This document shows positions 16,355-34,220 of a DNA stretch of 64,000 nucleotides, one piece after another (the stretch's first letter is position 1; the number at the start of each line of letters is the position of its first letter). This DNA is from Rhizoclosmatium globosum (lineage: Eukaryota; Chytridiomycota; Chytridiomycetes; Chytridiales; Chytriomycetaceae). The notes under the pieces are model-generated. The model did no database searches. It was not told the DNA's origin and saw nothing but the letters and a program-made list of their open reading frames with translations. The position numbers and the translations under genes are program-made. Location of the stretch: contig MCGO01000075.1 in assembly GCA_002104985.1 (NCBI GenBank), forward strand, positions 62,001 to 126,000, read 5' to 3'.

Positions 16355-17600
16355 TCAAGAAGAAGACCCCACTTCAATTCTGTTCAAAGCGTGTACTACC
16401 TGGGATATTTCGTCCTTCCAGTTTTTTCGATAACGATCTATAATGAACTCCATTGTGATTCGGTCTTGTGAAGAACACAGGAGAAGGATTCTGATTTGAA
16501 GACCCAAACTATGCAAAAGACGAAGACGAAATATATCGTTATTGAGCCATTTGTGGGTTTCCAAGAAGTCCTACGTGCGAAGTCAATTTAATGTTCGCTG
16601 TCACTCAAAAACGATGGGTGTATATACCTTGATTTCACGAAAGTAGGTTTGCACAAGACCCAAATCATTTTGTAACGATGAAAGAAGTTTGATCTCACTT
16701 TCTAATTTTGCGTCGATGTGAGAATCAGCTGGTGCCAATTTTGGCTGGTTTTGGGTTGCCGAGTATGTAGACAAAAGGTTATTTGCAACGATTATCTGAA
16801 GTTAACACAATGAGAAGCCAGCCATAAATTCATATCAATTAACCATAGAGTTACAATGCTCCCCAAACAAGTAGTCCGATATTAGACTCAAGGCTGCAGG
16901 GCGATCCAAGTTGTCATCACATCTTGAAAGGATCTGAAGCCTCTGAATCATCATTCGAATCCAAAGCCTGCATATATAATTATTCGCGGGTGCCGAGCTA
17001 TCCTGGTACCCCGTCTGAGTTTGATTGAAAACTTGTATGAGTGTTTCACAAAACTCATTAACCAACTCAGACTGAGATGCGAGGCTTTGAAGTTCTAGCA
17101 GAGAAAATTGAAGAGTTTTTGCATTTGACCGTGGATAGGATTCATCTGTGGTGTGGTAAGAGGGGTTTGGAACAGACATGCTGTTCCAAAGAGGATGATA
17201 AGCAGGACCCGGTTCGCTTTGAGGATAATAATTCCAATAAGGATTCTGATAATACGGGTATAAATATGGATGATGGCCGTATGACGGATAAGTGTGTTGA
17301 TTTGCCCAAAGTGTGGTATTTTCATCCTCCAATTGTTTGATACGTTCTAACAACTCCAGTTCTCGTGGTGTTGGAGTAGAAGCGGCTGCAGATTTCATTT
17401 CTGCTATAATAGATTCGAGCTCGCGGACTCTGGCCTCCTTTCTGGGTATGGGATGAGTTACAGTTTGGTATCTCAAGATCTAACCTCTGCCGGTACAACC
17501 GCTGTGCCCGTCGATTCTGTTCAGCTCTATTTGCAGCCTTATCGCGGTTTTTTGTGCCTTCCTTGCTGTTGGCTGAGAAGTGGTTTTGCTTTGGTGTCAT
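16355..17600 (-). CDS. bZIP-family protein, array member 3
   Basis: Four exons (17600-17485, 17441-16844, 16795-16628, 16570-16355), 365 aa. Basic region EQNRRAQRLYRQR is split from KEARVRELE by intron 1. The zipper continues as ELELLERIKQLEDENTTL. A Tyr/Pro-rich middle follows (YPSYGHHPYLYPYY). Helical repeat 1: LELQSLASQSELVNEF ... QRLQILSRCDDNLDR. Repeat 2: LLSSLQNDLGLVQTYF ... IRILLLCSSQDRITMEF and DRYRKNW. Exon 1 (116 nt) and exon 4 (216 nt) are the same length as in the next gene. Intact from ATG to TGA. Confidence 0.87.
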
Positions 17601-17987
17601 TGGAGATCGATGAACCGTTTTCCCAACTTTCTGTCAACTATTCATTGTAGTTCTCGTAAACGTTTAAAGAAACACAAACTGTAATTATTTTCCGCAGATG
17701 TATGCAGGTCGCAATCGATGGGTGGCTCGAAATTGAACTTGAATGATACCTAAATACAGTCTGAGCTCAGCTCGCTTACTTCACGATAAAAAATTATTAA
17801 AATAACAAGAAGCTTGTGGCTCACGAATATTAAGGTTATGCAATGTGTCGTTCGATGATGATTACTGTTGAGTTTCTAATGATTCTTTTGACGTCAATTA
17901 ATTGCTTACTTTCCGATTCTTATTACCTCTTAGGTATTCTTTAATCTGTTTCCGCAATAAATAAAGAAGAAAATCTGGAAACTTGAA
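17601..17987. other. Intergenic
   Basis: AT-rich spacer between array members 3 and 4; no gene seen. Confidence 0.5.
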
Positions 17988-19209
17988 CTAAGACAATGGA
18001 CCAACGTTAAGTCCAGTAAATATATGGGATAGCTTGGAAATATTATCATTCCAACACTTCCTATAACAATCTATCATTATCTCCAACGCTATTCGGTCAT
18101 CCGGAGAACAGATGAGAGACACTTTAATTTGTAGGCTTGTCAGAGACAGGATTTGCTGATGCAGTATTTCAGCATCGAGCTTTTTGCCAGTGTTTAAGAA
18201 ATCCTAGCGCGATAATATCAGAGTTCCAGCATCATTCAAAGAAAGGTAAACCTTGGTTGCATGAAAGAACGTTCGCACAAGACCCATATCATTTTGTAAT
18301 GATGAAAGCTGTTTATATTCATTTTCTAATTGCACGTCACTATCATTGATGGTGGTTTCTGAATTTAATTGTGGCTGGTTATATTTTGCCTCGCCCTCAG
18401 ACACAAGATCATCTGCAACCATAATCAATACAAAGTAGGAGATGACACCAAATCTAAAATCTACAACCATGCACTCTCGATGCTCGCCAAATATGTAATC
18501 GGATATTGCTCTTAAAGCCGCTGGGCGATCCAAGCAGTCATCACATTTCGAGAGAATTCGAAACCGTTGCGCCAACACCTGAATCCAAAGCGCTTTCACT
18601 TCATTAACAGGCGTGGGCCCATCTGTCCGCCCTGGTGATGTTTGATTGAAGAAGTGGGTGAGTGTTCCGCAAAACTCATTCACCAGTTCGGAGTGTGATT
18701 TGAGGCTTTGAAGTCCCAGCAAAGTAGTCTCAAGAGTATTTGAATTTGAGACAGGGTATGATGTATCACGATTGTGGTAGTAAAGGTTTGGAAGAGGTAT
18801 GGAAGGATAAACAGGGGCTGGCCCACTTTGAGGATAAAAATTCCAATACGCATTCTGATAAAACGGGTATGTATATGGATGATAGCCATATGAGGGATAC
18901 GTGTGTTGATTAGCTCGGAGCATGGTATTTTCGTCCTCAAGATGTTTGATACGTTCAAGCAACTCTAGCTCTCGTGGTGTAGGAGTGGTAGCAGTTGCAC
19001 TAGTTCTTTCAGCAACAATAGTTTCGAGCTCGCGGACTCTGGCCTCCTTTCTGGGTGTGGGATGAGACATACTTTGGTATCTCAAGAACTAACCTCTGTC
19101 GGTACAATCGCTGTGCCCTTCGATTCCGTTCTCCTCTGATTGCAGCTCTTTCGGACTCTTTCGTATCTTGACTGTTTTCGGCCGAGGAGTCGTGTGGTTT
19201 GGGTGTCGT
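17988..19209 (-). pseudogene. bZIP-family gene, array member 4, with lost start codon and decayed splice sites
   Basis: Same plan as member 3: exon 1 19209-19094 (116 nt, ERNRRAQRLYRQR), exon 2 19050-18468, exon 3 to 18252, exon 4 18203-17988 (216 nt). The position equivalent to member 3's ATG reads ACG, with an in-frame TGA 9 nt upstream, and no other ATG precedes the basic region. Intron 2 has a weak donor (GTTGTAG) and its acceptor AG has become TTG, although read-through stays open (VVDFRFGVISYF). The rest of the frame is undamaged. It could be a young pseudogene or could use a non-AUG start; the sequence cannot decide. Closest relative: the gene fragment at 3-609. Confidence 0.75.
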
Positions 19210-19463: not shown

Positions 19464-22400
19464 TTATTCTACATCAAGCTGATCCAATGTGTTCACAAGT
19501 TGGGCGACATCACCACTTTCGATTTGAGTACAATCCGTGATTCGTTCCATTTCAATACGATCGCACGGGGAACACATGAGAAGTGCCTGTATTTGTAAAC
19601 TCGCGAGCACTATTCTACGTTCACGAATTTCGACTGCACTCAACTTTTTGAAATTAGATAGTAATTCCTGTTACGACGGAGAAGTCTTCTCCGAGTGATC
19701 TGTCGACAGGTTAGTCCGCACCCACTCCCTCACCATTCCACTACAGAACCGACTAACTTACCCAAGCAGGAGGTACGTAGTTGGAAGTGTGATAAGCGAC
19801 ATCAAGGTGAGCGTGTCGGGGTTGCGTGGAGATTCCGGACCGGGACTGAACGGAATCCGCTTCTGACCACTCCTGTCCGTCTGTGGATTGCACACGTGAT
19901 CCCGTTCTTTGCTTTTTCACAACAAACACTTCCAGTGCCTGCCACACAAGTCGCCCGTCCTAACACAACTACGCCGTTAATGACTGGGTCAAGCAAGTCT
20001 ACTGTAAACACTACCGACGTCCACCGCCCCAAGCCTGTGGATGCTTTCGCTCCACACATGGTGTCCACGTCGCTTGATGAGAACGAGGCCTACATCAGGC
20101 AGCTCTACCTGTCTCTCGTCAATCCCGACCTCCAATCCACGCTTGTGCTCGCTTCCTACGAAATCTTCGCTCCCACAACCGCTCCCAAACCTATTATGGT
20201 GAAAAAGACGGTCACCTCCGAGAATGGTGGGCAGCCTTACGAAGTAACCGTGGAGAGCGACAAGCCGTCGGATCTGGCTGTTTTCCAGACGAATCAACTC
20301 AATCACAACGCATTAGTTGATGCTGCTCTGAAACACCAAAAGGAAGTCGATGACATCAACAACAAGCGAAAGGAACAACATCGCAAGTTTATTGATGGTC
20401 AAGCCGCTGCCCTCCGTGACTACTCCCAGCAGTTCTCTTCCATCAAGTGGAAAGAGATCCAGGAGGACCCAACATTCAAGGCCAACCCAACTCTTTTGAA
20501 TGCATTCGCTGCTGCGCGATCTGTTTTCCAACAAGACGACCGGGTTGGGGTGAGTGACTATTTTACGTCTTCCCCTTTTGCCTTATCCATTTCAAATTCG
20601 ACTTTGTAATGATGACTAATCGACTTTTCATCACACAGATGAACTTCACCACGTTCTTGAACAACCTCATGCAGTCTGGACTGTCGAAGGAGCATCGGAA
20701 CAGTTTGGAGAAGTGGGAAGCTTTCGTCGAGAAGCTCAAGAAGTCTTCCCAAGGTCTACAGCAAATCAAGGCTGTTTTCCAGCATTTCCAGTTCAATGAC
20801 ACTGATGCGGAAAAGGCTGCCGATATCTTCTCTCTTGTCCTCACTCTGGCCCTTGTCCACAAGAACATGCCAGATCCAAGTTCGGTCCTTGGAAGCCGCT
20901 TCATTGGAATCCGACTTGATATCGAGAAAGACGGTTACAAGTTGTTTCCAAATATGGAAGCTCTTATCACCAAGTTGACAAGCACTTTGACCAATGCTCG
21001 CAACCTTTCTGACCCATCTGACAAGTCTGACAAGAATATCAGAGCAAATGCTGTAAGTCATCATCATTATCTCCAACTATTGGTTTTGATAAATTACTAA
21101 CATCAAGCCATAGGGGAGAACCGAATCTTCACCAACGGTGTCAAAGTTCAAGGAGCTTGAGACTTGGCTTTCTAACAACGGATACAAAGCCAATCTCAAC
21201 AATACGTGTCGCCTCCATCAATCAACCAGAGGTCCAACACATCTCCTTCGCCATTGTCGTTTTGCTGCCAGTCTGATTGAGAAAGGAGAGGCTGTTGATC
21301 TGACCCAACGCTTAGAGAAATCTAAGACCACCCAGTCTTCCCCTACCTCAAACTTTGGTCCTTCTTCAAGTTCCCAAGACCGTGACAGAAGAAAAACTGA
21401 CAAGCGCCACCGTTCTGCTCGCGACGCTTCTGACTCTGACCGAAACAACCGTCGCAAGAAGCGTGCAAATGCTGCTGACACTGAGTATGAAACAGACTAC
21501 TACTCCGACAGTGCCAGTGATGACGAGAAAGACGTCAAGATTGACAAGAAGGCTCTCAGATTGATTCTGAAGGTGAGTGAAAATGCCGATTTGGTCGATT
21601 CCCCCCCCTCCGATTCTGATTTTGATATGCCTGCTCTTGCTGAATCCTCCAGTGACTCTGAGTCCATGGACGAATATGATTCCGACGATGGTTCTTACAC
21701 TTCATTGCCCAGACTTCAAAATCTAACAAGGACGTTGAGAAGCAAGTCCGTAAACTCGCGGGCAAGTAGAATCCAGAGAGGCTCAACGCTTCTTCAAGTC
21801 GATGAAGTTGACAAGTGGCACGATTTTAATGAGTTGTCAAAGCGGATTTTTGTTACACGTGGATTGAATGTTTTCAATAAACGTATCCGTTCTTTGATTG
21901 ATTCTGGTGCTTCCTTGATTATGACTCCCTGTTTAGAGCACTTTGTTCCTGGGACCTACCAGCCAGTTGAAGATGAATTTGTATATATGGCCAACGAAAA
22001 CAAGATCCCAATAGTCGGTACTGGTACCATCCGAATGTTCAGTAACCCTGAGAGACTGATTGAAGGCGCTCTTCATGTCCCTCAGCTTACAGACATGCTT
22101 GTGTCAATTTCCCACTTGTTACGTGACTCAAAAGATACCATTGAGTTCACTCAGAACAAGGTACGCTTGAAGCTCAATCAAACGCGTCAAGTCTTGGAAA
22201 TTGGAGCACGAGTCGGCGATCTTTACTACATTGACCTTGGTTATGACGAATCCAAATTTGCTGCACCTGCAAAGTCTATTCCTGCTCTGGATCGCAAAAC
22301 TTGGTTAGAATGGCACCAAGTCCTTGCCCACTGCAACGACCGTACTATGCGTCAAACATTGGACTCTGCAGGTATCACCTACAACTTTGAGCGAGACAAG

Positions 22401-25400
22401 AAAATCTGTCCTGCTTGTCCTGCCGTAGCACACAGGAAACGAACCACCCGTAAGCTTGATGGCCCATCAGACAGGCCAATTCACATGTTAAGCCACATAT
22501 ACGAAGACCTTTATCCTATTGGTTTTCGCACTATTCGTGGTTACAGGTATATAGCATTCATCCAATGCCGATACACCAAATATATGTGGATTCTACCACT
22601 CAAGTCAAAAGCAGAGTTTACCATCTGATTCACTCGTTTTCTGAACACTTTAGAGCTCAAGTATGGGTATCAGATTCTTGTAATTGGAGGCGACAGAGGT
22701 GAACTTGATACCAAGTGGATGGAAAATTGGTGCCTCTCCCATTCTGATGTTGAAGTGGAGCTCCGACTTGCACCAGCTTACACTCAAGAATTTAGTTTGG
22801 TCGAACGCCCTCTTGGAATCTACCGCGACAGAGCTGAATTGGAATTGCTTACATCCTTGTTCCCAAAGGATTTCTACTGCTTTGCAATTCAACTTGCAGT
22901 CTTTGTCATTAATTCACTCGTAACCGCTGCTCCTAAAAATGGAATTCGCGCGAAGTCACCGTATGAACGTATCACCAAGGTACAACCATACTACAATTAC
23001 TTCATTTCCATGGGTACGTTGGGATATACGCCAGTTGAAAAGAAACTACGGACCAAACGCGTTGGTAGAATGATCAAAGCAGAGCCCGTCGCCTTTCTTG
23101 CATACAAGTCGCGTACTATCATGATTGTTTGGAACTATCGCCTTCAAAAGCCAGTTGAAGTATTTCACGTTCGCTGGTGCCCCACCATCTTTCTTGGAAA
23201 GACCTTTGATCCAACAGTGGTAAACCCGTTTGTCAAGGCCCATGCTGATGCCATGCAGACATCAATGCCAGTGACTTCGGTTGAAGATGAAGTTTTCAAC
23301 TACTTCATTGACATACCAGATGATGGTTTCAAGGTACCTGAAGCACTTGTTGACTCCGAATCTGACACTCCAGAGTCTGGTTGGGACACCGATGCTACTA
23401 CACTTTCCAAGTCTGAGATGACGTATAAAGGGGACGTTGAGGCAGTTTCTTTGGAAGATGAAGGTGAATAGCTGTACACTATCATAATTCCTTCAAATTC
23501 TTATGTAACAATCATACAAATCTTTAGATGATACTATCATGACTGACGATGAGGCAAGTCTTGAGAAGCTATTCTCTAAAGTCCAGCCTGTTGGTGAATC
23601 TATGGCCCATGGTTAGTATTCCTCAATACGCCAAGCAAAATGTAACATTCTTTATGTTTTCCTATAGATTCTGCTGACAGTTCCAGCCCATTATTTTCGG
23701 GACCTTTAATCGATGGCCCTCGCCTTGCCAGAGAACGTGAGGATATTTCTCGTCTCCTCCAAGAGCCTGGTCGAAGCCTGCGAAAGCGACCACGTAGCCG
23801 CGAGTCTTCGAGTGAACCTCCACAAAAGCCACGTCGTCTCCGAGCAAAGGTTTCCAAGTCGTCTATTTCTCTTGGTACCAGTGATTTAGATGAATTCATA
23901 TCTTATATGCAACACATTTTCAAGGAAGGTCAAGTTCTTATGTCAGACTCAGATTCAGCATCTGACTCTGAAGCCTCAAGCTCTGGCACCAAACCTGCTA
24001 AGTCCAAAGATGAAGCAGAGCCAGCAACCCTATCTGATCCAGACTTTGAAGCTGCATTGAGCTGCCGCGCACTTGAAGCTATAACTACTGTGGTTCGTGC
24101 AAGTACTACATACATTAGGCTTCAACACCGAGTTGAACGTGCTGCCAAATCAACTGGCAAGAAATTCAGTAAACTCCGCCGCCGCGCCGAACATGCTCGT
24201 GTCGAAATGGATAGCCTTATGAGTTCCCAGATGGAAGAGTTGGAGAAAGAAAGATCTCGCATCAACGCTGCCCGCCGACCAGAACTTCACTTTGATTGGT
24301 CCAAGGCTGCTCCCTCTGATGTACCAACTGAACGTATTCATGTTTCCAATGCTCCACCTGTTCCTAAGTCAGTTCGTGAAGCTATGGAAGGATGCTTTGC
24401 TGCTTACTTTCAACGTGCAATGCTGTGTGAAATTGAGAGTCTAATGAACCGCGAAGTTTACACCACTTCTCTTTTGCCTGAAGGTCGCAAACCCATCAAA
24501 TCAAAGTGGGTTTACGCATACAAGACTGATCCTGAAGGATTCATCACTCGCTTTAAAGCTCGTCTTGTTGCAGTCGGCTGTGGTCAAACCCCTTATGATG
24601 ACTTTGACGAAACTCATTCGCCAACAGTCAAGATCAAGGCAATCCGTGTTCTCATCGCGTTAAGCGCCGCATTTAACCTCCACATTTCGCAACTTGATAT
24701 CAAGACTGCATTTTTGTATGGTGACTTGGACCATCCAAACGACATGCATCTTCCCCCAGGGTTCACTGAAAAAGACTCTGAAGGTAGACCTCTCTTTGCC
24801 GAGCTCAAGAAAGCACTTTATGGCCTTTGCCAAGCTGGACGCCAATGGTATAAGAGACTACGCGATTTCTTTGTGAAAATTGGTTTCCAACAGTTGAAAA
24901 CTGATTCCTGTGTCTTCATGAAGATTGATCCAACTACTGGTCAACTTGTCATCATTCTATTCTATGTTGATGATATCCTCATTGCTTGTAAGGACCAAGC
25001 TGTGATTGACCAAATCAAGGAGCTTATTAAGTCTGAGTTTGAGATTTCTGACCTTGGCCAAGCCAAATGGATTCTCAAGATCCAAGTTGAACGCACCAAA
25101 GCGGGAATATGGATAGGACAACCTCAATATGCTCATGCTCTGCTGAAAGAATACGATATTTGGGATCTGGACTCCAACAATTGGGCCGATACCCCAATGG
25201 CCACCACTTGGAATCATGACCCAAGTAGCCCTCCCATTTCTGCAGAAGGACAACGCAAATACTGTTCAATTATCGTGGACTTTATGGAATACAAACCTAA
25301 AGTTCGGAATGAACAAGCCCAGTCGGTAAGAACCGGAAGGTCGGGAAGGAAAGGGGAGATTGCCTGGTGATTTGACCACCATCATATCTTTGGTCAAATC

Positions 25401-28400
25401 ACCAGGTGCGTACTTGTACATAAGTTCTGGGTTACATTAGTTAGCTAATAAACATCATATCTTTGGTCAAATCACCAGAACCCAGAACTGCACGGATTAG
25501 GAGTCCCATTACTCTACGATTAACCTGACCTGCGAAAAAGAGAAAACATGTCATACACGTTAAAGAGAGGCGAATCATTCGAGCCACTCACCGTGGAGAA
25601 CAAAGCCAGTCGCACAACTAGTTGGCTGAACGACATTAAGACCCATGTCGACAAGAACAACCTCAGCCAAGTTTACTACCTACGTCCAATGAAAGGAGCC
25701 AACTACGTCTATATTCGAAAGTACTCGCATTTTTTCGAATACCACATCCCCGAGCCGAGCGAATCTGAAGCAATCTTCAATGCTGGAGGCCAGTTCAACG
25801 AGACGTACTTCCAAACAATGTTCAATATCTGGCAGAACGTCAACTCCACCATAGTCGAGGCAGTAACTCGTCATCTCGACAACACCCTCAAGGCATCGTT
25901 CAACAGCACCTCAAGCTCCATCTTCAACAGGATGAAGGCACTTGATACAGTTGTGGCTTTCAATCCTCAAGTATCCCTACAACAGGCTATCAGAGCATTA
26001 AAAAAGGCAGAAAAGCACTCACATGAAACAAACTATCAGTGGTTTTCCCGATTCAACGCACTCAAGCTAAAAGCGGAGGAACTCGGACAAGAGAAGAATG
26101 GGAACAGTGAATGTGGTTATGATTTGATCTACAACATTCCAGACGTATCGGATCGCAGAAACCTCCAGATGGAACTTGCAGGCATTGCCAGAGACAACTA
26201 CGAGAAATATGCAGAGGAGATTTCCATCAACATGGCCCGAGAATCCCACTGCGAAACAACCCGCATTGCGCAAGCGAAATCAGCTACAGAAATCCAACCA
26301 GACGTCACTTCCAAGATCCTTCAAACGCTTGAAAAGTTGACCATTGCAATGTCGTCCATTCAAACACCAAGAAAAGGATCGTCCGTGTCAAAGTCTTCCA
26401 GTTCCAAGAAACAAGCCCAAATCTTCATTGGGAACCTACCTGATGGAACAACGCTCGAAAACATAAAAGCATTTCTCCATCCAGCCAATGTGTCTGACGA
26501 ATCTTTCATCGGAAAATCAAAAAGATCGCCCTCCTCTTATGCTCTTGTCGTTCTTCAAGCTCCATTCTCTGTATCTGATGTTGACAGAATTGTAAAGGAG
26601 AAGAATGGAAAGGAATTGAATGGTTCTGAAATAAAGGTGGACAAGGCTGCCACGTTATCTGCTTATATCTCAGTTCCAAACTCTTTCTCAAAAATCCGAG
26701 CCTATTTAGATTCAGCATGTAGCAAATCCATGACTGGAGATTCGACTCTGTTATCCAACGTAAAGGAAGCAACTCCTATCGTTTACGAGACTGCTTCAGG
26801 GAAAACCATCCGCAGCGAAGGCATAGAGGGAGAGATGAATTTTAATGGAATAATCATCAAGGAAATTCAGCACGTTCCTGGTGCACCGGCAACTCTCATA
26901 GCCCTCATCGATCTTTTAAACAAGGGTTATGATGTCTGGTTCAACCACAAATCAAAAGCAGTAAGTATTGGACGGCTTGACAACTCAGGCCCTGGACTTC
27001 ACTCGGTGCTAAAAAGCATAGACGAAAAGGATGGAACATGGGAAATCACTTCTATCCCATCAGAACAGGCACTGGTCTCAAAAGCACTTCTCGGTGCAGG
27101 TATACCACGAGAGAAAACCATTCAGTTATGGCACTCTCGTTTCATGCATGCATCACCGGAACAAATTGTCGCAACTGCCAGTGTAGTCCATGGCCTCAAA
27201 ATCAACGGCCCGAAAACAGTCAAAGACTTCTTCTGTGAAGACTGCGTCTTGGGAAAAATGCACCAACGTCCCTACAACAACAAAAAAGACAGAGACGGAC
27301 AGATTCTTTCCCAAATTTCCATGGATGTCGGTTTTCCCGGAAAAGGAGAAGACGGAAAGACAAATCTTGGTAGAGGGGGAATCATTGGCTACTTGGGAAT
27401 CAATGTTCACAGGACTCAATTGAGGATTATGTTAAAACTGAAATCAATGCGAGGAGAGGAATTACTGGAAAAGGTCACGTGGACAAGGACTATGTTAGAA
27501 CGTCTAACGGGAGAGAAACTGTTGACAATATACTCAGATCAGGGGAGTAATTTCACCACAACGGCTTTGGCTGTTGCGTGCAAAGAACTGGGCATTACCT
27601 TGGACACTACTTGCACTGGAGCTAAAAATCAGCATGGTGAAATAGATGGGTGGTTTCGAACGGCTATGGATTCAGTGAGGGCAACTATGTCTGAAACTGG
27701 CATCCCGAGGGACTTGTGGCCAGATCTATTGGAGTGTAAAGCACACGTCTGGAACAGAACGCTACACAATGGCGAGGACTTCACTCCATACGAGTTAACA
27801 TTCAAAAAGAAACCAACAGTCTCTGATCTACGTGTTCCTGGCTGTCTCGCTTATGTATTCCAGCCTGGCGTCGGAAAGACACTTGATCGTGCAAAACGAG
27901 GACGATTCATCTCCTACGCATATGCTGACGGCCAACCAAACAGTCGCCGAGGCTACCGAATTCTCTATCCAGACAATAGCTCCGAAATAAGCAGGGACGT
28001 GTACTTCGTTGAAAATCAGTTTGACGTTGACAATCCTCTCACATCCACCGAAAAAATTCCCTTGACGCGATACAACTCTCATCACGACTCGGAGGGATGG
28101 GATCAGGACGAAGACTTTGTGGGGGATATTGTTAAAACCACTGAAAAGACAATTATTGAATTAGAAGAGATTGTAAAGGGGGAACAAAAACAACAAAAAC
28201 AAAAAGAACAAACAGAAAAAGAAAAAGAAAAAGAAAAAGAAAAAGAGGAGGAGTTGCGTTCTGAGGGCTCTTTGAGAACTGAGGGAAATGACCGTACTGA
28301 GGGCATTACAGGAATTGACGGAAGTGAGAGCTCCACAGATAACTCTTCTAATGACGACTCAGATGGGGATTATGAGCCTGAAGAAGCATTGGATAACACA

Positions 28401-31400
28401 TCACCTCCCCCCGCACGCCCCAACCGTCTTCGACGTCCTCCCAATCGACTGGCACTCTTTGCTGGTCTGGCACGTTTAGATGACTATTCAGGCTATATGA
28501 TCAATGAACCAACTTTCCTTGCCTTTGTCGCACTCAAAAGGAACTTCGCGTTCAGCACAATGGATGGTCCCCGGAGTATTAAGGAAGCATTGAAGGACGA
28601 AGAATGGAAAAAGGCGATTCAAGAAGAACTGGATCAATTCGCAGACAAGAACTCATGGGAATTGGTTGAAGCGGAAGCTGGACAACACCTGCTGTCAACC
28701 ATATGGGTCTTGAAAATCAAGGTAGACGATAAATCAGGAACAAAGAAGAAAAAGGCACGGCTAGTGGTGAATGGTTCAAAACAGTTGTCCTCAGAATATG
28801 ACAAGATATTTGCGGCAACTCCTTACCATGAATCGACAAAAATCTTTCAAGCTATATGTACTCACCTGGGTTTGAATATGTCAAAGGGTGATGTAAGAGG
28901 AGCGTACCACAACTCAGAAATTGATAAAATCATTCACGTTCGTATTCCTCAAGGGATGAAGCTCAACGAGGAAGACAAAGGAAAAGTCTTGCGAGCGCTG
29001 AAAGGAATCTACGGACTTAAACAAGGAGCTTACTTATGGGAATGCCTAAGGAACGAATTTCTTGAAGAATTTGGATTCGTCGAATGCCCAGGAGCTCCGT
29101 GCCTCTTCATGGCTATCTCAAAAAAGACTGGAGGTGTAATGTACACACTGTGGCACTCCGACGACGGAAAAGTTGGGGCACAATTCAAAGAGGACGGAAT
29201 AGACTTCTGGAAGTGGCTTGAAACGAAGGTGGAAGTAAGGTGGGAAGAAGGTATCGGAATGTGGGCAGGAATCAACAGCGAGTACTTTGACGGGTACTCC
29301 ACTATGGATCAAATTGCCTACATACAAGGTATTCTGGACGAATTTCTTGAAACTAAATCATTCCCATCCGGTGCACCTATCTCCCGTTCAAGTCCTTGGA
29401 ACCAAAAATTCGATGAAACATTTGACACTGATCAACCCACTCCAAGCGACGAGACTGCGCTATTCGAGGGGAGATGGCTACGTCTGCTCGGCCTACTACG
29501 ATTTGCTTGTCTCACGCGAGCGGATATAATCGAGACACTTGGTCGCTTATGCTCATACTCTAATAACCCACACCGAATTCATTGGGAAGCTGCCCAACAT
29601 CTGCTGGAATACCTCAACGGTTCGAACAATACAAAACTTTACTTCAGAGCCGGAACGAACATGATTCTTGAGGTATATAGCGACGCCAACCTTGCAGGAA
29701 ACAAAGTGACGCGAAAATCAACAACTGGAAACGTCATGATGCTCGCAGGAGCTGCAATCGCACCTATCTCCAAAGCACAACAAATTGTCACGGATTCAAC
29801 AGTTGCGTCAGAAACCGTTGCCCTCGCAAGCGCAGCAAAGTTGGCGGAATGGGGTCGTGGTGTTTTGGACTGGCTTGGTTTCGCACAACCTAAGGCCACA
29901 GTGGTGCATTGCGACAACGCTGGAGCTGTTCGGAACTCTCAGGAAGGCGCCGACAGACACAAAACAAAACACATGGATATCAAGTATATGCTCCTTCGTT
30001 GCATGGTCAAGCGAGGAATCATCGAGGTCCGGAAGATAAATACTCTTGACAATATTGCCCATGTCATGACAAAGGGCCTTGGAAAGAATAAGCACGGGGA
30101 ATTCACTAAGGCCATGGGCTTATTCAAGGGGAGCGTGGACTTTATGGAATACAAACCTAAAGTTCGGAATGAACAAGCCCAGTCGGCAAGAACCGGAAGG
30201 TCGGGAAGGAAAGGGGAGATTGCCTGGTGATTTGACCACCATCATATCTTTGGTCAAATCACCAGGTGCGTACTTGTACATAAGTTCTGGGTTACATTAG
30301 TTAGCTAATAAACATCATATCTTTGGTCAAATCACCAGAACCCAGAACTGCACGATTATTGCCAAGTTGATTTATTTGAGTTGTATGACCAGACCAGACC
30401 TCATATGCGCTGTGAACACTCTGGCTCAGTTTCAACGTTCCTCCACCACTCAGCATGACTATGATGCGCTGATTCGAGTTTTACGCTATCTTCGTAGAAC
30501 TTATGATTGGGGAATTCTTTTCAAGGCAAGTGCTTCTGGTGACCTCACTGTCTACTCTTCTGAAGAGTCTCGAGTAAGGACTGACCGACCACTTGATATG
30601 GAACTGCCAGAAGGATTGGCTCCACATGCTGCTGCTGATTCAAGTTTTGCACAAGAGACTGATCGTAAGTCTCGCTCTGCATATGTGATGATGGCTTTCG
30701 GAGGTCCAGTTGCCTGGTACTCCAAGAAGCAGCCAACTACTGCTTTGTCTTCTACTGAATCCGAGCTCTATGCCCTCGTTGAAGCAGTTAAAGAAGCTCT
30801 TTGGATGCGTCTATTCTTGCAAGAACTTGGTTTCAAGTTGCCTGGTTCTACAGTAATTGATCAAGACAATCAGTCTACAATTGCTATTGCATCCAACCCC
30901 ATCAACCATGCCCGTGTTAAACACATGGAGGTCAAGGCTCATTTTGTACGTGAACATATTGAAAACAGCAATGTTTCTCTGGTTTACTGCCCCACTGAGT
31001 TGATGGTTGCTGATGTACTTACTAAGGCTCTGCCTGCTCCCCAACACTACAGGTTATGTGGTATGATGGGAATGTGTAAGTTATCTGATGTTGACCCTGA
31101 TTATAAGTTTAAAGCACTTAGAGTCAGATACACAAGGTTTAGTGATTAAATAAACATTTATGAAGTGCTTCTGTGTCTCCAGTATAGTCTCGTCACAGGG
31201 GGGGCGCGTGTCACGCGCGTGCCGGCACCTCTGGGCTTATTATACGCACTCAATCTAGTCCGACACTCTTATCACTTCACACGTGACTGCAACCTACCCT
31301 GTCGTCACAGGGGGGTGTTACGACGGAGAAGTCTTCTCCGAGTGATCTGTCGACAGGTTAGTCCGCACCCACTCCCTCACCATTCCACTACAGAACCGAC

Positions 31401-32682
31401 TAACTTACCCAAGCAGGAGGTACGTAGTTGGAAGTGTGATAAGCGACATCAAGGTGAGCGTGTCGGGGTTGCGTGGAGATTCCGGACCGGGACTGAACAG
31501 AATCCGCTTCCGACCACTCCTGTCCGTCCGTGGATTGCACACGTGATCCCGTTCTTCGCTTTTTCACAACAAACACTTCCAGTGCCTGCCACACAAGTCG
31601 CCCGTCCTAACAATTCCTAGCCGAGTACGCAATTATAAACAATAACAAGCAAGAAACGAGAAAGTACCTGACGCTCACGAAATATTTGGCTCACAAGACC
31701 GGGATGATTATGCATTGATGGGAGTGAGCTAACCTCGTTTGCCAACTGTGAATGCAGATGCTCCTCCGACTCAGACTGACTTTGAAGTGTGTTTAATTCG
31801 ACGCTTTGGGGGCAAAGGGGGACAAGGGAGGAAAGGTGATCTCGTAGAAGAGTCTGGAGAGGCGAAAAGCATTAGATCAAAAGACAAGAGGCCTTTATAG
31901 ATACCATTTTCTCTCTATGCTCGTTAAATAAATAGTTTGATATTATTGTTAGAGCTTTTAGGAGTTCATCGGCAGCTGTACACTTTGAGAGCAGGTGGTG
32001 TCTTTGCAACAACCAGTCTAACCAAAGTGTAGCAATGGTTCCTCGTACCACTCGGTCAGCTCCATGCAAGGACTCAATCGCTTGAATGACGTTAACAAAT
32101 GTCTGACAAAGTCGAATGACTGGCTCCGAATGTGGCTTGAGACTTGGAATTAAAAGCAAATCATGTTCCATAGATGTAGAATGAGCCAAATACTCATTTT
32201 CAATGGGTTTAACAAAATAATCTGGTTCATGGGTGGGGAGTTGGTTGGGTAGTGCCGTAAAATGATTGACAGGTGCAGGAGGATGAGGATAGTACTGCCA
32301 GTGGTAAGCAGGGTAATAAGGATATGCATATGGATGATATGTAGGGGCAGTATGGTGATGCTGGTTTGTTCGGAGGATCGAGTTTTCTTCCTCCAACTGT
32401 CTAATTCGTTCTAATAGAGCCGCCTCCCGTGAAGTCGGAGCAGATTCACCCCCTCCCACAATCTTTGCCACGGTAGCTTCGAGTTCGCGGACCCGGGCCT
32501 CCCTTCTGGTGTCAGGTGAACGGTTGGCTGAGTAAACATTTAATTCAAGGATCTCACATTACTCACCTTTGCCGATATAAGCGCTGGGCCTTCCGGTTCT
32601 GGGCGGCTCTGATGGCAGCTCGATCGGTATCTTTCTTGTCTTCTTTATCATCTGAGGAGGAGTCTTGGGCTCTCGGTGTCAT
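19464..32682 (-). CDS. bZIP-family protein, array member 5, split by a nested retrotransposon
   Basis: Exons 1-3 lie right of the insertion (32682-32567, 32505-31905, 31853-31668). Exon 4 is split, with four bases at 31616-31613 and the rest at 19663-19464 (stop TAA). Without the insertion it codes for 368 aa: basic region AQNRKAQRLYRQR, zipper RREARVRELEATV and EAALLERIRQLEEEN, Tyr/Pro/His-rich middle, repeat 1 (LIPSLKPHSEPVIRLC ... HLLSKCTAADELLKAL) and repeat 2 (ending LQIQALLMCSPCDRIEMER). The 12-kb element sits four bases inside exon 4, so the intron would now be about 12 kb. The LTR end plus the duplicated target recreate a CAG acceptor before GAATTAC (19668-19667). Whether it is still expressed is unknown. 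Confidence 0.8.
19669..19965 (+). repeat. Left LTR of the outer copia element
   Basis: 297 bp, TG...CA ends, matches 31316-31612 with about four substitutions. Gag ATG at 19980 follows 14 nt after it. Confidence 0.95.
19980..31149 (+). CDS. Outer copia gag-pol polyprotein, five exons, one internal TGA, split by the inner element
   Basis: Exons 19980-20549, 20639-21052, 21114-23463, 23528-23611 and 23668-25273 plus 30360-31149 give one 1938-codon frame once four GT-AG introns and the inner element are removed. Gag occupies about residues 1-400 and has no obvious CCHC knuckle. Protease: LIDSGASLIM. Zinc-binding pre-integrase: WHQVLAHCN...CPAC. Integrase: YEDLYPIGFR, GGDRGELD and VERPLG. Reverse transcriptase: SQLDIKTAFLYGDL and ILFYVDDILIAC, both intact. 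RNase H: ADSSFA, STESELYALVEA, KHMEVKAHF. Defects: TGA at 22626-22628 inside the integrase, and the inner insertion before the RNase H part. Acidic Ser/Asp-rich linkers lie between gag and protease and between integrase and RT. Confidence 0.88.
20550..20638 (+). other. Intron 1 in outer copia gag
   Basis: 89 nt, GTGAGTG...CTAAT...CACACAG, phase 0. Length is not a multiple of three and the intron contains stops, so gag-pol needs splicing. Confidence 0.85.
21053..21113 (+). other. Intron 2 in outer copia gag
   Basis: 61 nt, GTAAGTC...TTACTAAC...CCATAG, phase 0, with a perfect branch-site match. Confidence 0.88.
23464..23527 (+). other. Intron 3 in outer copia pol (after integrase)
   Basis: 64 nt, GTGAATAG...ATCTTTAG, phase 1. 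It removes an in-frame TAG and joins GAA-G to AT-GAT. Confidence 0.8.
23612..23667 (+). other. Intron 4 in outer copia pol (before reverse transcriptase)
   Basis: 56 nt, GTTAGTATT...TTCCTATAG, phase 1. Frames on both sides are open and acidic/basic-rich. Confidence 0.82.
25274..25494 (+). repeat. Left LTR of the inner copia element
   Basis: 221 bp. Contains a perfect 16-bp inverted repeat (25363-25378 with 25391-25406, 12-nt loop) and a 26-bp direct repeat (25380-25405 and 25453-25478). Confidence 0.93.
25548..30230 (+). CDS. Inner copia gag-pol polyprotein with RRM-like domain
   Basis: 1560 aa, uninterrupted. Gag about 1-280. RRM-like fold at about 291-367 (IFIGNLP as RNP2, SYALVVL as RNP1, ending GSEIKVDKA) where a CCHC knuckle is expected. 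Protease with DSACSKSM (Asp388) rather than DSGA. Pre-integrase WHSRFMH...CEDC. Integrase catalytic residues Asp593 (SMDVGF), Asp664 (YSDQGSNF) and Glu698 (HGEIDGWF). A Lys/Glu-rich linker of about 40 residues. Reverse transcriptase with KGDVRGAY (Asp1115) and HSDDG (1205-1206) in place of YVDD. RNase H YSDANLAGN, SETVALASAAK, HCDNAGAV, TKHMDIKY. The last 32 residues are encoded by the 3' LTR. Coding capacity looks complete. Confidence 0.93.
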   Translation: MSYTLKRGESFEPLTVENKASRTTSWLNDIKTHVDKNNLSQVYYLRPMKGANYVYIRKYSHFFEYHIPEPSESEAIFNAGGQFNETYFQTMFNIWQNVNSTIVEAVTRHLDNTLKASFNSTSSSIFNRMKALDTVVAFNPQVSLQQAIRALKKAEKHSHETNYQWFSRFNALKLKAEELGQEKNGNSECGYDLIYNIPDVSDRRNLQMELAGIARDNYEKYAEEISINMARESHCETTRIAQAKSATEIQPDVTSKILQTLEKLTIAMSSIQTPRKGSSVSKSSSSKKQAQIFIGNLPDGTTLENIKAFLHPANVSDESFIGKSKRSPSSYALVVLQAPFSVSDVDRIVKEKNGKELNGSEIKVDKAATLSAYISVPNSFSKIRAYLDSACSKSMTGDSTLLSNVKEATPIVYETASGKTIRSEGIEGEMNFNGIIIKEIQHVPGAPATLIALIDLLNKGYDVWFNHKSKAVSIGRLDNSGPGLHSVLKSIDEKDGTWEITSIPSEQALVSKALLGAGIPREKTIQLWHSRFMHASPEQIVATASVVHGLKINGPKTVKDFFCEDCVLGKMHQRPYNNKKDRDGQILSQISMDVGFPGKGEDGKTNLGRGGIIGYLGINVHRTQLRIMLKLKSMRGEELLEKVTWTRTMLERLTGEKLLTIYSDQGSNFTTTALAVACKELGITLDTTCTGAKNQHGEIDGWFRTAMDSVRATMSETGIPRDLWPDLLECKAHVWNRTLHNGEDFTPYELTFKKKPTVSDLRVPGCLAYVFQPGVGKTLDRAKRGRFISYAYADGQPNSRRGYRILYPDNSSEISRDVYFVENQFDVDNPLTSTEKIPLTRYNSHHDSEGWDQDEDFVGDIVKTTEKTIIELEEIVKGEQKQQKQKEQTEKEKEKEKEKEEELRSEGSLRTEGNDRTEGITGIDGSESSTDNSSNDDSDGDYEPEEALDNTSPPPARPNRLRRPPNRLALFAGLARLDDYSGYMINEPTFLAFVALKRNFAFSTMDGPRSIKEALKDEEWKKAIQEELDQFADKNSWELVEAEAGQHLLSTIWVLKIKVDDKSGTKKKKARLVVNGSKQLSSEYDKIFAATPYHESTKIFQAICTHLGLNMSKGDVRGAYHNSEIDKIIHVRIPQGMKLNEEDKGKVLRALKGIYGLKQGAYLWECLRNEFLEEFGFVECPGAPCLFMAISKKTGGVMYTLWHSDDGKVGAQFKEDGIDFWKWLETKVEVRWEEGIGMWAGINSEYFDGYSTMDQIAYIQGILDEFLETKSFPSGAPISRSSPWNQKFDETFDTDQPTPSDETALFEGRWLRLLGLLRFACLTRADIIETLGRLCSYSNNPHRIHWEAAQHLLEYLNGSNNTKLYFRAGTNMILEVYSDANLAGNKVTRKSTTGNVMMLAGAAIAPISKAQQIVTDSTVASETVALASAAKLAEWGRGVLDWLGFAQPKATVVHCDNAGAVRNSQEGADRHKTKHMDIKYMLLRCMVKRGIIEVRKINTLDNIAHVMTKGLGKNKHGEFTKAMGLFKGSVDFMEYKPKVRNEQAQSARTGRSGRKGEIAW
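30134..30354 (+). repeat. Right LTR of the inner copia element
   Basis: 221 bp, near-identical to 25274-25494. The gag-pol frame runs 97 bases into it before stopping at 30230. The hairpin arms are at 30223-30238 and 30251-30266. Confidence 0.93.
31316..31612 (+). repeat. Right LTR of the outer copia element
   Basis: 297 bp, preceded by the purine tract at about 31308-31315 and followed by the ATTCC target repeat. Confidence 0.95.
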
Positions 32683-32874
32683 ACTGTGGTCACCCAAGCA
32701 CTTTTCACCGACTTTTACCCGAGATCGATTTCCAACGAAGTATATCAAAATTTGATTCATTGGGTATTCCCAAAGTATACATTTTATTCGTTTAATACAA
32801 ACACTGAGAAAAACGACTTCCAAGTCAAAGTATACTTTATCAACGGATTACCCCATTGGCTCATAAATAGATAA

Positions 32875-34220
32875 TTAAATCTCCAGTGCGTCCAACGCAT
32901 TCACTATTGTTTCCACATCTCTGCTCGATTCTTTTCGAGATCGATCAAATATCTTCTCAACTTCAATCCGATCCTGCGACAAACAAAGAAGCAAAATCTG
33001 GATTTGTAAACTCGCCACATGTAGATTTCTGGATTGAAGTAGGCGAGAAGAGCGCGATAAAGTCCGTGATTCTGTCAATAGAAACTAAAAAAGCATTAGA
33101 GATGAATTTCTCGTCTCTGACACAAAGCGTGGCAAACCTTGGTTTCGCAAAACAGTTCTTGAACAAGAGTAATATGGCTTTGTATGGAATCAAGTTTGGA
33201 ACACTCGTTTTCATATCGACTCCATGAATCAGTCTCAAGAGATTCATCGATCACTACAGCTAAAAACGTTGACGCACTTCCTGCTTTACGACGGTTAAAT
33301 GCTTTCGAGGCTTCAACGAGCTGAGTTTGAACAAGAATCTACTCGAATTAGTTGGACATCATGTTTGTTAGTTTTACGTGAACCCTCACCATTGATTCGC
33401 GATTATCTTCGAACATATGATCCGAAATCGCGACTATGGCCTTCATCCTTTCGGCATTCGTGGCACAAGAAGTCAAGACTCGAAACTTTTGTACCGACAC
33501 GTCCAACCACATTGAGCACACCTTTGACATGAAATCGTCCTCCAAACTCTTTGGTGAATTCACCATGCGACAGATATCTTCAAATAGCCTGCAAAATCGG
33601 TGTACAGTCGATGAGCAATTCTTGAGACTCGGTAACTCCTGCAAAACACGTTCAATGGCAGTTGATTCAAAAGGCGGATTATTCGATTCAATGGACTCGC
33701 AGGTTGTCATATCAGTCAGGTGTGATTCGTCACCCAAGTGTTGTGGTGCAAAATGAGGGTTACTCGGCGATTGACAAAAAGGAGCATGTGACGGCGGTAT
33801 TGCGTGATTATAGCCTTGTTCATAGTATGAGTGATAATACGAGTATGAGTAAGGATGGTATCCGTGCATAGGATACATAGTATATGTTGGGTGATAAGGT
33901 TGGGAGGCAGTGGCTTTCAGCGCTCTGTTTTCGGTTTCCAAGATCTCAATCCTCCTCATAAGCTCAGCCTCTCTTGGTGTTACGGCATCGCTCTCTTCGG
34001 TTGCAGCCAGTCGCGCAACAGTGGCTTCGAGTTCACGGATCCGAGCCTCTTTTCTGGAAAGTAATTGTGTGAGTCATAAGGGATTGGTAAGCTTCGGAGA
34101 CTGTTACCTTTGGCGGTACAATCGCTGGGCTTTTCGATTCTGAGCGGAACGAATTGCGGCTTTCTCGTCATCGTCATCGTCCTTGTACGAGACCACAGCA
34201 TCGGTTCTTTTTGGAGGCAT
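32875..34220 (-). CDS. bZIP-family protein, array member 6
   Basis: Exons 34220-34108, 34053-33390, 33320-33138 and 33084-32875; 389 aa. MPPKRTD start, an acidic run (DDDDDE), basic region AQNRKAQRLYRQR, zipper KEARIRELEATVARL and EAELMRRIEILETENRAL, then a Tyr/His/Pro-rich middle. Repeat 1: VLQELPSLKNCSSTVHRF ... KFRVLTSCATNAERMKA. Repeat 2: KLDSIQSHITLVQELF ... LQIQILLLCLSQDRIEVEK. The exon 1 donor splits the basic region exactly as in members 3, 4 and 5. All phases consistent. Confidence 0.87.

What the first reader, a model, noticed from the sequence alone, without database searches (positions are those of the whole stretch)
19669..31612. LTR retrotransposon with four spliceosomal introns inside gag-pol
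Seen: four intervals (20550-20638, 21053-21113, 23464-23527, 23612-23667) have GT...AG ends. Two have clear branch sites, including TTACTAAC. None is a multiple of three, and removing all four joins five segments into one 1938-codon gag-pol frame. Established: introns are normally lost when an element copies itself through spliced RNA. Inference: the genomic RNA is copied unspliced while gag-pol is translated from spliced mRNA. Splicing would then separate genome from messenger, as in some retroviruses but with introns inside the polyprotein.
Basis: partly seen in the sequence, partly recalled or inferred. Interest (0 to 1): 0.88.

Follow-up and report, generated by a model that had tools for sequence, protein, structure and literature searches.

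The report
Intron-bearing Copia retrotransposon in a chytrid
A jumping gene in what looks like a chytrid fungus carries ordinary spliceable introns inside its protein-coding frame and still copies itself with them in place, so the RNA it copies and the RNA it translates are most likely different molecules.

Summary
The four GT...AG intervals are real and almost certainly spliceosomal introns. The element is a Ty1/Copia LTR retrotransposon (LTRs 19669-19965 and 31316-31612, TSD ATTCC; an empty site was found on another contig). A second, intronless Copia element sits inside its RT exon (25274-30354).

The genome holds 13 places (about 11 loci) of this family. None of the 12 fetched copies is spliced at the four introns. 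Seven have identical LTR pairs and perfect 5-bp TSDs at seven sites, and all seven carry the introns. Exons show purifying selection in the spliced frame (pN/pS 0.15).

The strongest evidence was not in the finding. Eleven of 11 fetched non-twin copies carry a fifth intron (56 nt, GTGAGT...TTACAG). The window copy and its near-identical twin on contig C34 lack it exactly to the base, as expected if a partly spliced RNA was once copied. Related families in the same genome also carry introns, some at matching positions; one is intronless in a single 1958-codon frame.

One claim is wrong: the window copy has an in-frame TGA at 22626.

Best reading: unspliced RNA is the genome, spliced RNA the messenger. 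Splicing in vivo and selective packaging are not shown. New variant of a known kind.

The parts
19664..19668 (.). 5-bp target site duplication ATTCC, left copy (right copy 31613-31617)
   Evidence: sequence printed; single ATTCC at the empty site on C235
19669..19965 (+). 5' LTR of the outer element, 297 bp
   Evidence: direct repeat D1; 293/297 identical to the 3' LTR
19980..20549 (+). exon 1 (gag), 190 codons; ATG 14 nt after the LTR
   Evidence: open frame; 185 of 192 residues identical to the Rhizoclosmatium hyalinum model P0011
20550..20638 (+). intron 1, 89 nt, phase 0
   Evidence: whole in 10 of 12 fetched copies, 5' end deleted in the other two; P0011 joins exons exactly here
20639..21052 (+). 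exon 2 (gag), 138 codons
   Evidence: open frame
21053..21113 (+). intron 2, 61 nt (58 in seven other copies), phase 0, TTACTAAC
   Evidence: present in 11 of 12 fetched copies, region deleted in L032; P0011 joins exons exactly here
21114..23463 (+). exon 3 (Pol_BBD, integrase region), here fused across the lost intron 5; in-frame TGA at 22626
22996..22997 (+). junction where intron 5 (56 nt, phase 2) of other copies is exactly absent
23464..23527 (+). intron 3, 64 nt, phase 1
   Evidence: present in 12 of 12 fetched copies; L032 has a 7-nt deletion inside
23528..23611 (+). exon 4, 84 nt
23612..23667 (+). intron 4, 56 nt, phase 1
   Evidence: present in 12 of 12 fetched copies
23668..25273 (+). 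exon 5, first part (reverse transcriptase)
   Evidence: RVT_2, E 7e-55
25274..30354 (+). nested intronless Copia element, LTRs 25274-25494 and 30134-30354, ATTAT duplication
30360..31149 (+). exon 5, second part, in the same frame, ending in TAA
   Evidence: ORF 30301-31149
31306..31315 (+). polypurine tract CACAGGGGGG
   Evidence: sequence printed; role inferred from position
31316..31612 (+). 3' LTR, 297 bp

Best explanation
This is a recently active Ty1/Copia family whose gag-pol frame is split by five short spliceosomal introns; the window copy has lost one of them. RNA unspliced at these introns is reverse-transcribed and integrated, so new copies keep them. Full Gag-Pol must come from RNA spliced at all five sites, because every intron brings an in-frame stop. 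Now and then a partly spliced RNA is copied (or reverse transcription switches to one), which removes an intron exactly, as happened to intron 5 in the window lineage. Shown: the young insertions carry the introns, the spliced frame is under purifying selection, and one intron is exactly absent at one locus. Inferred: splicing in living cells, separate RNA pools, and any preference for unspliced RNA in particles.
For: 12 fetched copies: introns 3 and 4 in 12 of 12, intron 2 in 11 of 12, intron 1 whole in 10 of 12. Seven copies with 298/298 or 299/299 identical LTR pairs and perfect, different 5-bp TSDs, all with introns 1-5. Intron 5 in 11 of 11 non-twin copies and exactly absent in window and twin; in the 10 copies matched by pattern the 60+60 nt flanks show 0-4 differences from the window junction in eight and 7 and 14 in two. 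pN/pS 0.15, 111 of 166 changes at third positions. Each retained intron gives a stop. An R. hyalinum gene model joins exons exactly at introns 1 and 2. Introns in related families B, C, D and an intronless 1958-codon relative L050. Empty site.
Against: No RNA evidence. The R. hyalinum model is a prediction and deals oddly with the rest of the element. Splice motifs do not stand out from exon background. The direction (loss, not gain, of intron 5) rests on distances in an unrooted tree with weak inner support, and intron 5 was not seen in the related families. The window copy shows that partly spliced RNA can be copied, so any separation is imperfect.
Confidence: 0.87

Rival explanations
1. Passive leak: they are introns, but nothing sorts genome from messenger. 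Splicing is simply incomplete, both RNAs can be copied, and intron loss is rare or less fit.
For: One exact loss (intron 5) at one of about 11 loci shows that partly spliced RNA is sometimes copied. An intronless related family exists. Introns 1-4 fold no better than shuffles. Family B shows no low intron variation.
Against: No copy spliced at introns 1-4 among the 12 fetched, although each intron would need frequent splicing for Pol to be made. Low intron variation in family A.
Confidence: 0.45
2. The intervals are local indels or diverged coding stretches, not introns.
For: Motif matches alone are no better than background.
Against: Exact 56-nt GT...AG presence/absence between copies, in-frame stops in every interval, third-position bias in the spliced frame, an intronless relative read through in one frame.
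Confidence: 0.03
3. The intron-bearing copies spread as DNA (segmental duplication, contig redundancy), so they say nothing about the copied RNA.
For: Two pairs do look like this: window/C34 (255/255 nt of upstream flank) and L033/L034 (99.5% over 431 nt of flank).
Against: Perfect 5-bp TSDs, all different, at 10 of about 11 loci, with no flank similarity among the 12 fetched copies except L033/L034 (L025 has a cut 3' LTR and could not be tested). Empty site with one ATTCC for the window insertion.
Confidence: 0.02
4. Intron 5 was gained by the other copies; the window copy shows the older, intronless state at that site.
For: Intron 5 was not seen at this place in families B, C, D or in L050. 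The tree of copies is unrooted.
Against: The most diverged copies (L032, L033, L034) carry it, and the window copy is closer to the main group (1.2-1.6%) than those are. A root on the window branch would be needed.
Confidence: 0.15

Closest known systems
Ogre (plant Ty3/Gypsy)
   Same: LTR element with an intron whose spliced transcripts are known; PMC3735527 (passages) says it splices between ORFs; PMC12786077 (passages) names it as an exception among intron-poor plant elements
   Different: Gypsy, plants. Here it is Copia in a likely chytrid, with five introns, two in gag, one in the integrase region and two between integrase and RT
BARE1 (barley Copia)
   Same: Copia; spliced and unspliced RNA pools, the replicated RNA unspliced (PMC3735527, passages)
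   Different: BARE1 has one open frame and one optional 104-nt intron whose splicing gives Gag only. Here splicing opens the frame and retention closes it
Drosophila copia; EVADE of Arabidopsis
   Same: Copia elements that splice to make subgenomic RNA (mentioned in the passages)
   Different: There the unspliced RNA encodes Gag-Pol; here it cannot
Retroviruses
   Same: Unspliced RNA is the genome, and intron-containing RNA must escape splicing and nuclear retention (general knowledge; abstract starts in the listing)
   Different: Retroviral Gag-Pol is made from the unspliced RNA; here it would be made from the spliced one
Penelope-like elements (recalled, no paper read)
   Same: Retroelements whose copies can keep introns
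   Different: No LTR/Copia-type cycle; another RT class

Membership tests
Ty1/Copia LTR retrotransposon | LTRs and short target site duplication | tested here: met
   297-bp LTRs 99% identical, TSD ATTCC and empty site
Ty1/Copia LTR retrotransposon | RVT_2-type reverse transcriptase | tested here: met
   RVT_2 E 7e-55 in exon 5
Ty1/Copia LTR retrotransposon | integrase upstream of RT | tested here: inconclusive
   no rve match in the window pieces; in the relative L050 rve (E 4e-4, below the curated cutoff) lies between Pol_BBD and RVT_2
Ty1/Copia LTR retrotransposon | RNase H after RT | tested here: inconclusive
   only a weak RVT_3 match, E 0.1, in 30361-31146
Ty1/Copia LTR retrotransposon | primer binding site | not tested
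   the first bases after the LTR were printed but not compared with tRNAs of this genome
Spliceosomal introns | GT...AG ends and branch-like motif | tested here: met
   motif strength alone not beyond background
Spliceosomal introns | removal restores the frame; exons under coding selection | tested here: met
   (one in-frame TGA apart)
Spliceosomal introns | exact presence/absence between copies | tested here: met
   intron 5 only
Spliceosomal introns | spliced RNA observed | not testable with these tools
   no RNA data at hand
Retrovirus-like split of genome and messenger | intron-bearing RNA is what is copied | tested here: met
   seven young insertions with all five introns
Retrovirus-like split of genome and messenger | active export or packaging of unspliced RNA | not testable with these tools
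   needs RNA from particles

The most novel reading that the evidence does not exclude
The introns are working parts, not passengers. The gag ATG lies 14 nt after the LTR, so there is almost no leader to hold a packaging signal. Intron RNA, absent from every full messenger, could mark the genome for packaging and keep spliced RNA out. The downstream introns (5, 3, 4), whose in-frame stops begin at intron nt 2, 6 and 3, could set the ratio of Gag to RT by graded retention, in place of a frameshift. Low variation in introns (8/270 vs 64/781 fourfold sites, p 0.003) and introns at matching positions in diverged families would then reflect selection on them.
Probability: 0.2. Interest if true: 0.88.

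Novelty: new variant of a known kind. Interest (0 to 1): 0.72.

Why it matters
Loss of an intron on passage through RNA is the classic proof of retrotransposition (the 1985 Ty experiment, described in a passage of PMC12786077). Here is a family in which the youngest copies keep five introns in one polyprotein frame, together with a natural copy where one intron was lost exactly. It makes testable how an element keeps the RNA it copies apart from the RNA it translates, and how introns are gained, kept and lost in a genome that must pass through RNA. Intron-bearing and intronless relatives live in the same genome, so the comparison is built in.

Tried and rejected
Motif statistics: a splice-motif pattern does not separate these introns from exon background (8 matches against a mean of 4.2), so it was not used as evidence. 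One search also failed to find intron 5 in L024 because I had typed its start wrongly; corrected.

Intron variation in other families: the family C pair (L051/L054) looked intron-conserved, but 160 of its 179 differences lie in the last two bins, where the ends do not align, so it was dropped. Family B gave 3/221 and 2/221 intron differences against 7/664 and 6/664 fourfold ones: no sign of constraint, which speaks against a general rule.

My splice-aware aligner also proposes introns that I reject: in L024 a 75-nt and a 116-nt one and a wrong 5' end for intron 5, and several weak ones in L049, L051, L052 and L054. I kept those with a frame need or a broken conserved motif and a good donor. 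In L049 the break at 1986-2103 was not solved.

A protein search with the R. hyalinum model found only itself. The RT tree puts families A-D on one side and the intronless L050 on the other (support 84) with weak inner support (33, 47, 62), so whether L050 lost introns or never had them is open. Introns 1-4 fold no better than shuffles (z 0.26, -0.98, 0.60, -1.34). The 63-nt stretch missing from the 3' UTR of the window copy has no GT...AG ends and is taken as a plain deletion.

Papers: ten searches listed no report that by title or abstract start describes multi-intron Copia elements in fungi. I read passages of four papers and no whole text. The library lacks most subscription papers.

Full report
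What was claimed.

Anatomy. The outer element runs from 19669 to 31612 with 297-bp LTRs (293/297 identical), TSD ATTCC on both sides and a purine-rich tract before the 3' LTR. Contig C235 carries the same flanks at 95.3% and 93.1% identity with a single ATTCC and no element. Inside exon 5 lies a second Copia element, 25274-30354, with identical 221-bp LTRs, an ATTAT duplication and one uninterrupted frame. A 1.5-kb probe of it found only this locus and its twin on C34. Pfam finds Pol_BBD in exon 3 and RVT_2 in exon 5; integrase core and RNase H were not found at confident scores.

The host. The window is part of a 56.9-Mb, 420-contig assembly. Among the listed protein matches, P0011 is a gene model of the chytrid Rhizoclosmatium hyalinum, identical at 185 of 191 residues over exon 1 of copy L024 (taxonomy). 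I infer a Rhizoclosmatium-like chytrid.

The four intervals. They have the stated coordinates and ends and lengths of 89, 61, 64 and 56 nt. They are T-rich (36.9% against 26.2% in exons; the pool holds one stray base from a failed intron-5 fetch) and have TAAC/TAAT motifs 16-25 nt from the 3' end. If retained, each gives an in-frame stop, beginning at intron nt 58, 46, 6 and 3. Motifs alone are not evidence.

Copies in the genome. DNA searches return 13 places plus one 57-nt match elsewhere; the tool calls such counts lower bounds. C34 matches the window over all 5,605 nt of the outer element fetched, with one difference in 1,541 nt of the nested one, and has identical flanks (255 nt upstream, 411 nt downstream to its contig end). 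C109 and C372 share flanks at 99.5%. That leaves about 11 loci. I fetched 12 copies. Introns 3 and 4 are in 12 of 12. Intron 2 is in 11 of 12 (its region is deleted in L032). Intron 1 is whole in 10 of 12; C109 and C372 lost its 5' end in a 33-nt deletion. Seven copies (L024, L026-L031) have LTR pairs identical over 298-299 nt and perfect, different 5-bp TSDs. They are recent, independent insertions, and all carry the introns.

A fifth intron. In 11 of 11 fetched copies other than the twin there is a further 56-nt interval, GTGAGT...TAACAACTATTTACAG, where window base 22996 meets 22997. A strict pattern matched it in 10 of the 11; the flanks on either side (60+60 nt) differ from the window junction at 0-4 places in eight copies and at 7 and 14 in L034 and L033. 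L032 differs beside the interval and was missed by the pattern. The phase is 2, and retention gives an immediate TGA. The most diverged copies carry it, and the window copy is nearer to the main group (1.2-1.6%) than they are, so loss in the window lineage is the simpler reading; the tree is unrooted, so gain elsewhere is not excluded.

Selection. Over exons 1 to 5a in the window and 9 copies (the rearranged L033/L034 and the twin left out) there are 57 nonsynonymous and 109 synonymous changes, pN/pS 0.15, with 111 of 166 at third positions. Seven of the 9 copies have no stop or frameshift there, and the same seven have an 805-codon open exon 5. L027 has a one-base deletion and L032 larger deletions.

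Relatives. Protein searches with the RT exon find families at 46-56% identity in the same genome. L050 (C52) is open over 1958 codons without introns; L053 is a second copy with one frameshift. L051/L054 (family C) have introns near reference residues 191, 383, 1100 and 1139 (1109 in L054, which has a 12-nt deletion in it), and a 57-nt in-frame one inside the RT motif at 1521. L051 also has an in-frame stop. L049 (family B; L060 and L061 are 99.2-99.3% identical to it over about 6.4 kb) has well-supported ones near 191 and 1146. L052 (family D) has ones at 489 and 1238. B and C share the intron at 191 in place and phase; A's intron 1 lies within one codon of it but in another phase. A and C both have two phase-1 introns near 1100 and 1139, parted by a short exon (84 and 87 nt); the protein there is too diverged for more than positional homology. 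The introns are probably older than the split of these families. The tree does not settle whether the intronless family lost them.

Mechanism. Young copies keep introns whose retention closes the frame, so the copied RNA cannot be the messenger for Pol. That the copied RNA was unspliced is shown by the insertions. Translation from spliced RNA is inferred from selection on the spliced frame and from the R. hyalinum model, which joins exons exactly at introns 1 and 2 but is itself a prediction. The exact absence of intron 5 with introns 1-4 kept points to a partly spliced template or a template switch. Whether unspliced RNA is actively chosen is unknown. Introns vary less than fourfold sites in family A (8/270 vs 64/781, p 0.003; 6/270 vs 60/781, p 0.0007 without the window), which hints at a role; but only a handful of changes carry this, family B gives no such sign, and introns 1-4 fold no better than shuffles.

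Compared with what is known. Passages of PMC3735527 say that Ogre splices between ORFs, that CRR removes rt, and that BARE1 splices to make Gag only while its replicated RNA is unspliced. Passages of PMC12786077 say that plant LTR elements generally lack introns, with Ogre and EVADE as exceptions. Several introns that must all be removed to reach Pol, in a fungal Copia clade, were not met in the ten paper searches, in a library that lacks most subscription papers.

Verdict.

Noticed in passing
L035 (C405:12562-12618): Bases 8-64 of intron 1 match non-element, non-coding DNA at 84% (57 nt, E 4e-10): a possible source or relative of the intron, unexplained.
   Followed up: partly
window 25274-30354: Nested Copia element with identical LTRs, an intact-looking frame, a weak RRM-like match (below cutoff) and LTR ends CGTG/CACG instead of TG/CA; found only at this locus and its C34 twin with a 1.5-kb probe.
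   Followed up: partly
window 16835-19088 and 31872-34073, minus strand: Several similar ORFs that begin like bZIP factors (RKEARVRELE...LERIKxLExEN), apparently a tandem array into which the element inserted; the name is my reading of the motif.
   Followed up: no
L033/L034 (C109, C372): Old, rearranged copy with an inverted internal segment and a 33-nt deletion over the 5' splice site of intron 1.
   Followed up: partly
L025 (C124:185051-192451): The 3' LTR is cut after 165 nt and followed by another piece of the element, a tandem or recombined arrangement.
   Followed up: no
window against C34 and C235: C34 is nearly identical to the window region and ends inside it, while C235 matches the flanks at 93-95% without the element: redundant contigs plus a diverged haplotype or duplicate.
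   Followed up: partly
window after 31166: A 63-nt 3' UTR stretch present in the 10 other copies aligned there is missing from the window copy, without GT...AG ends.
   Followed up: partly
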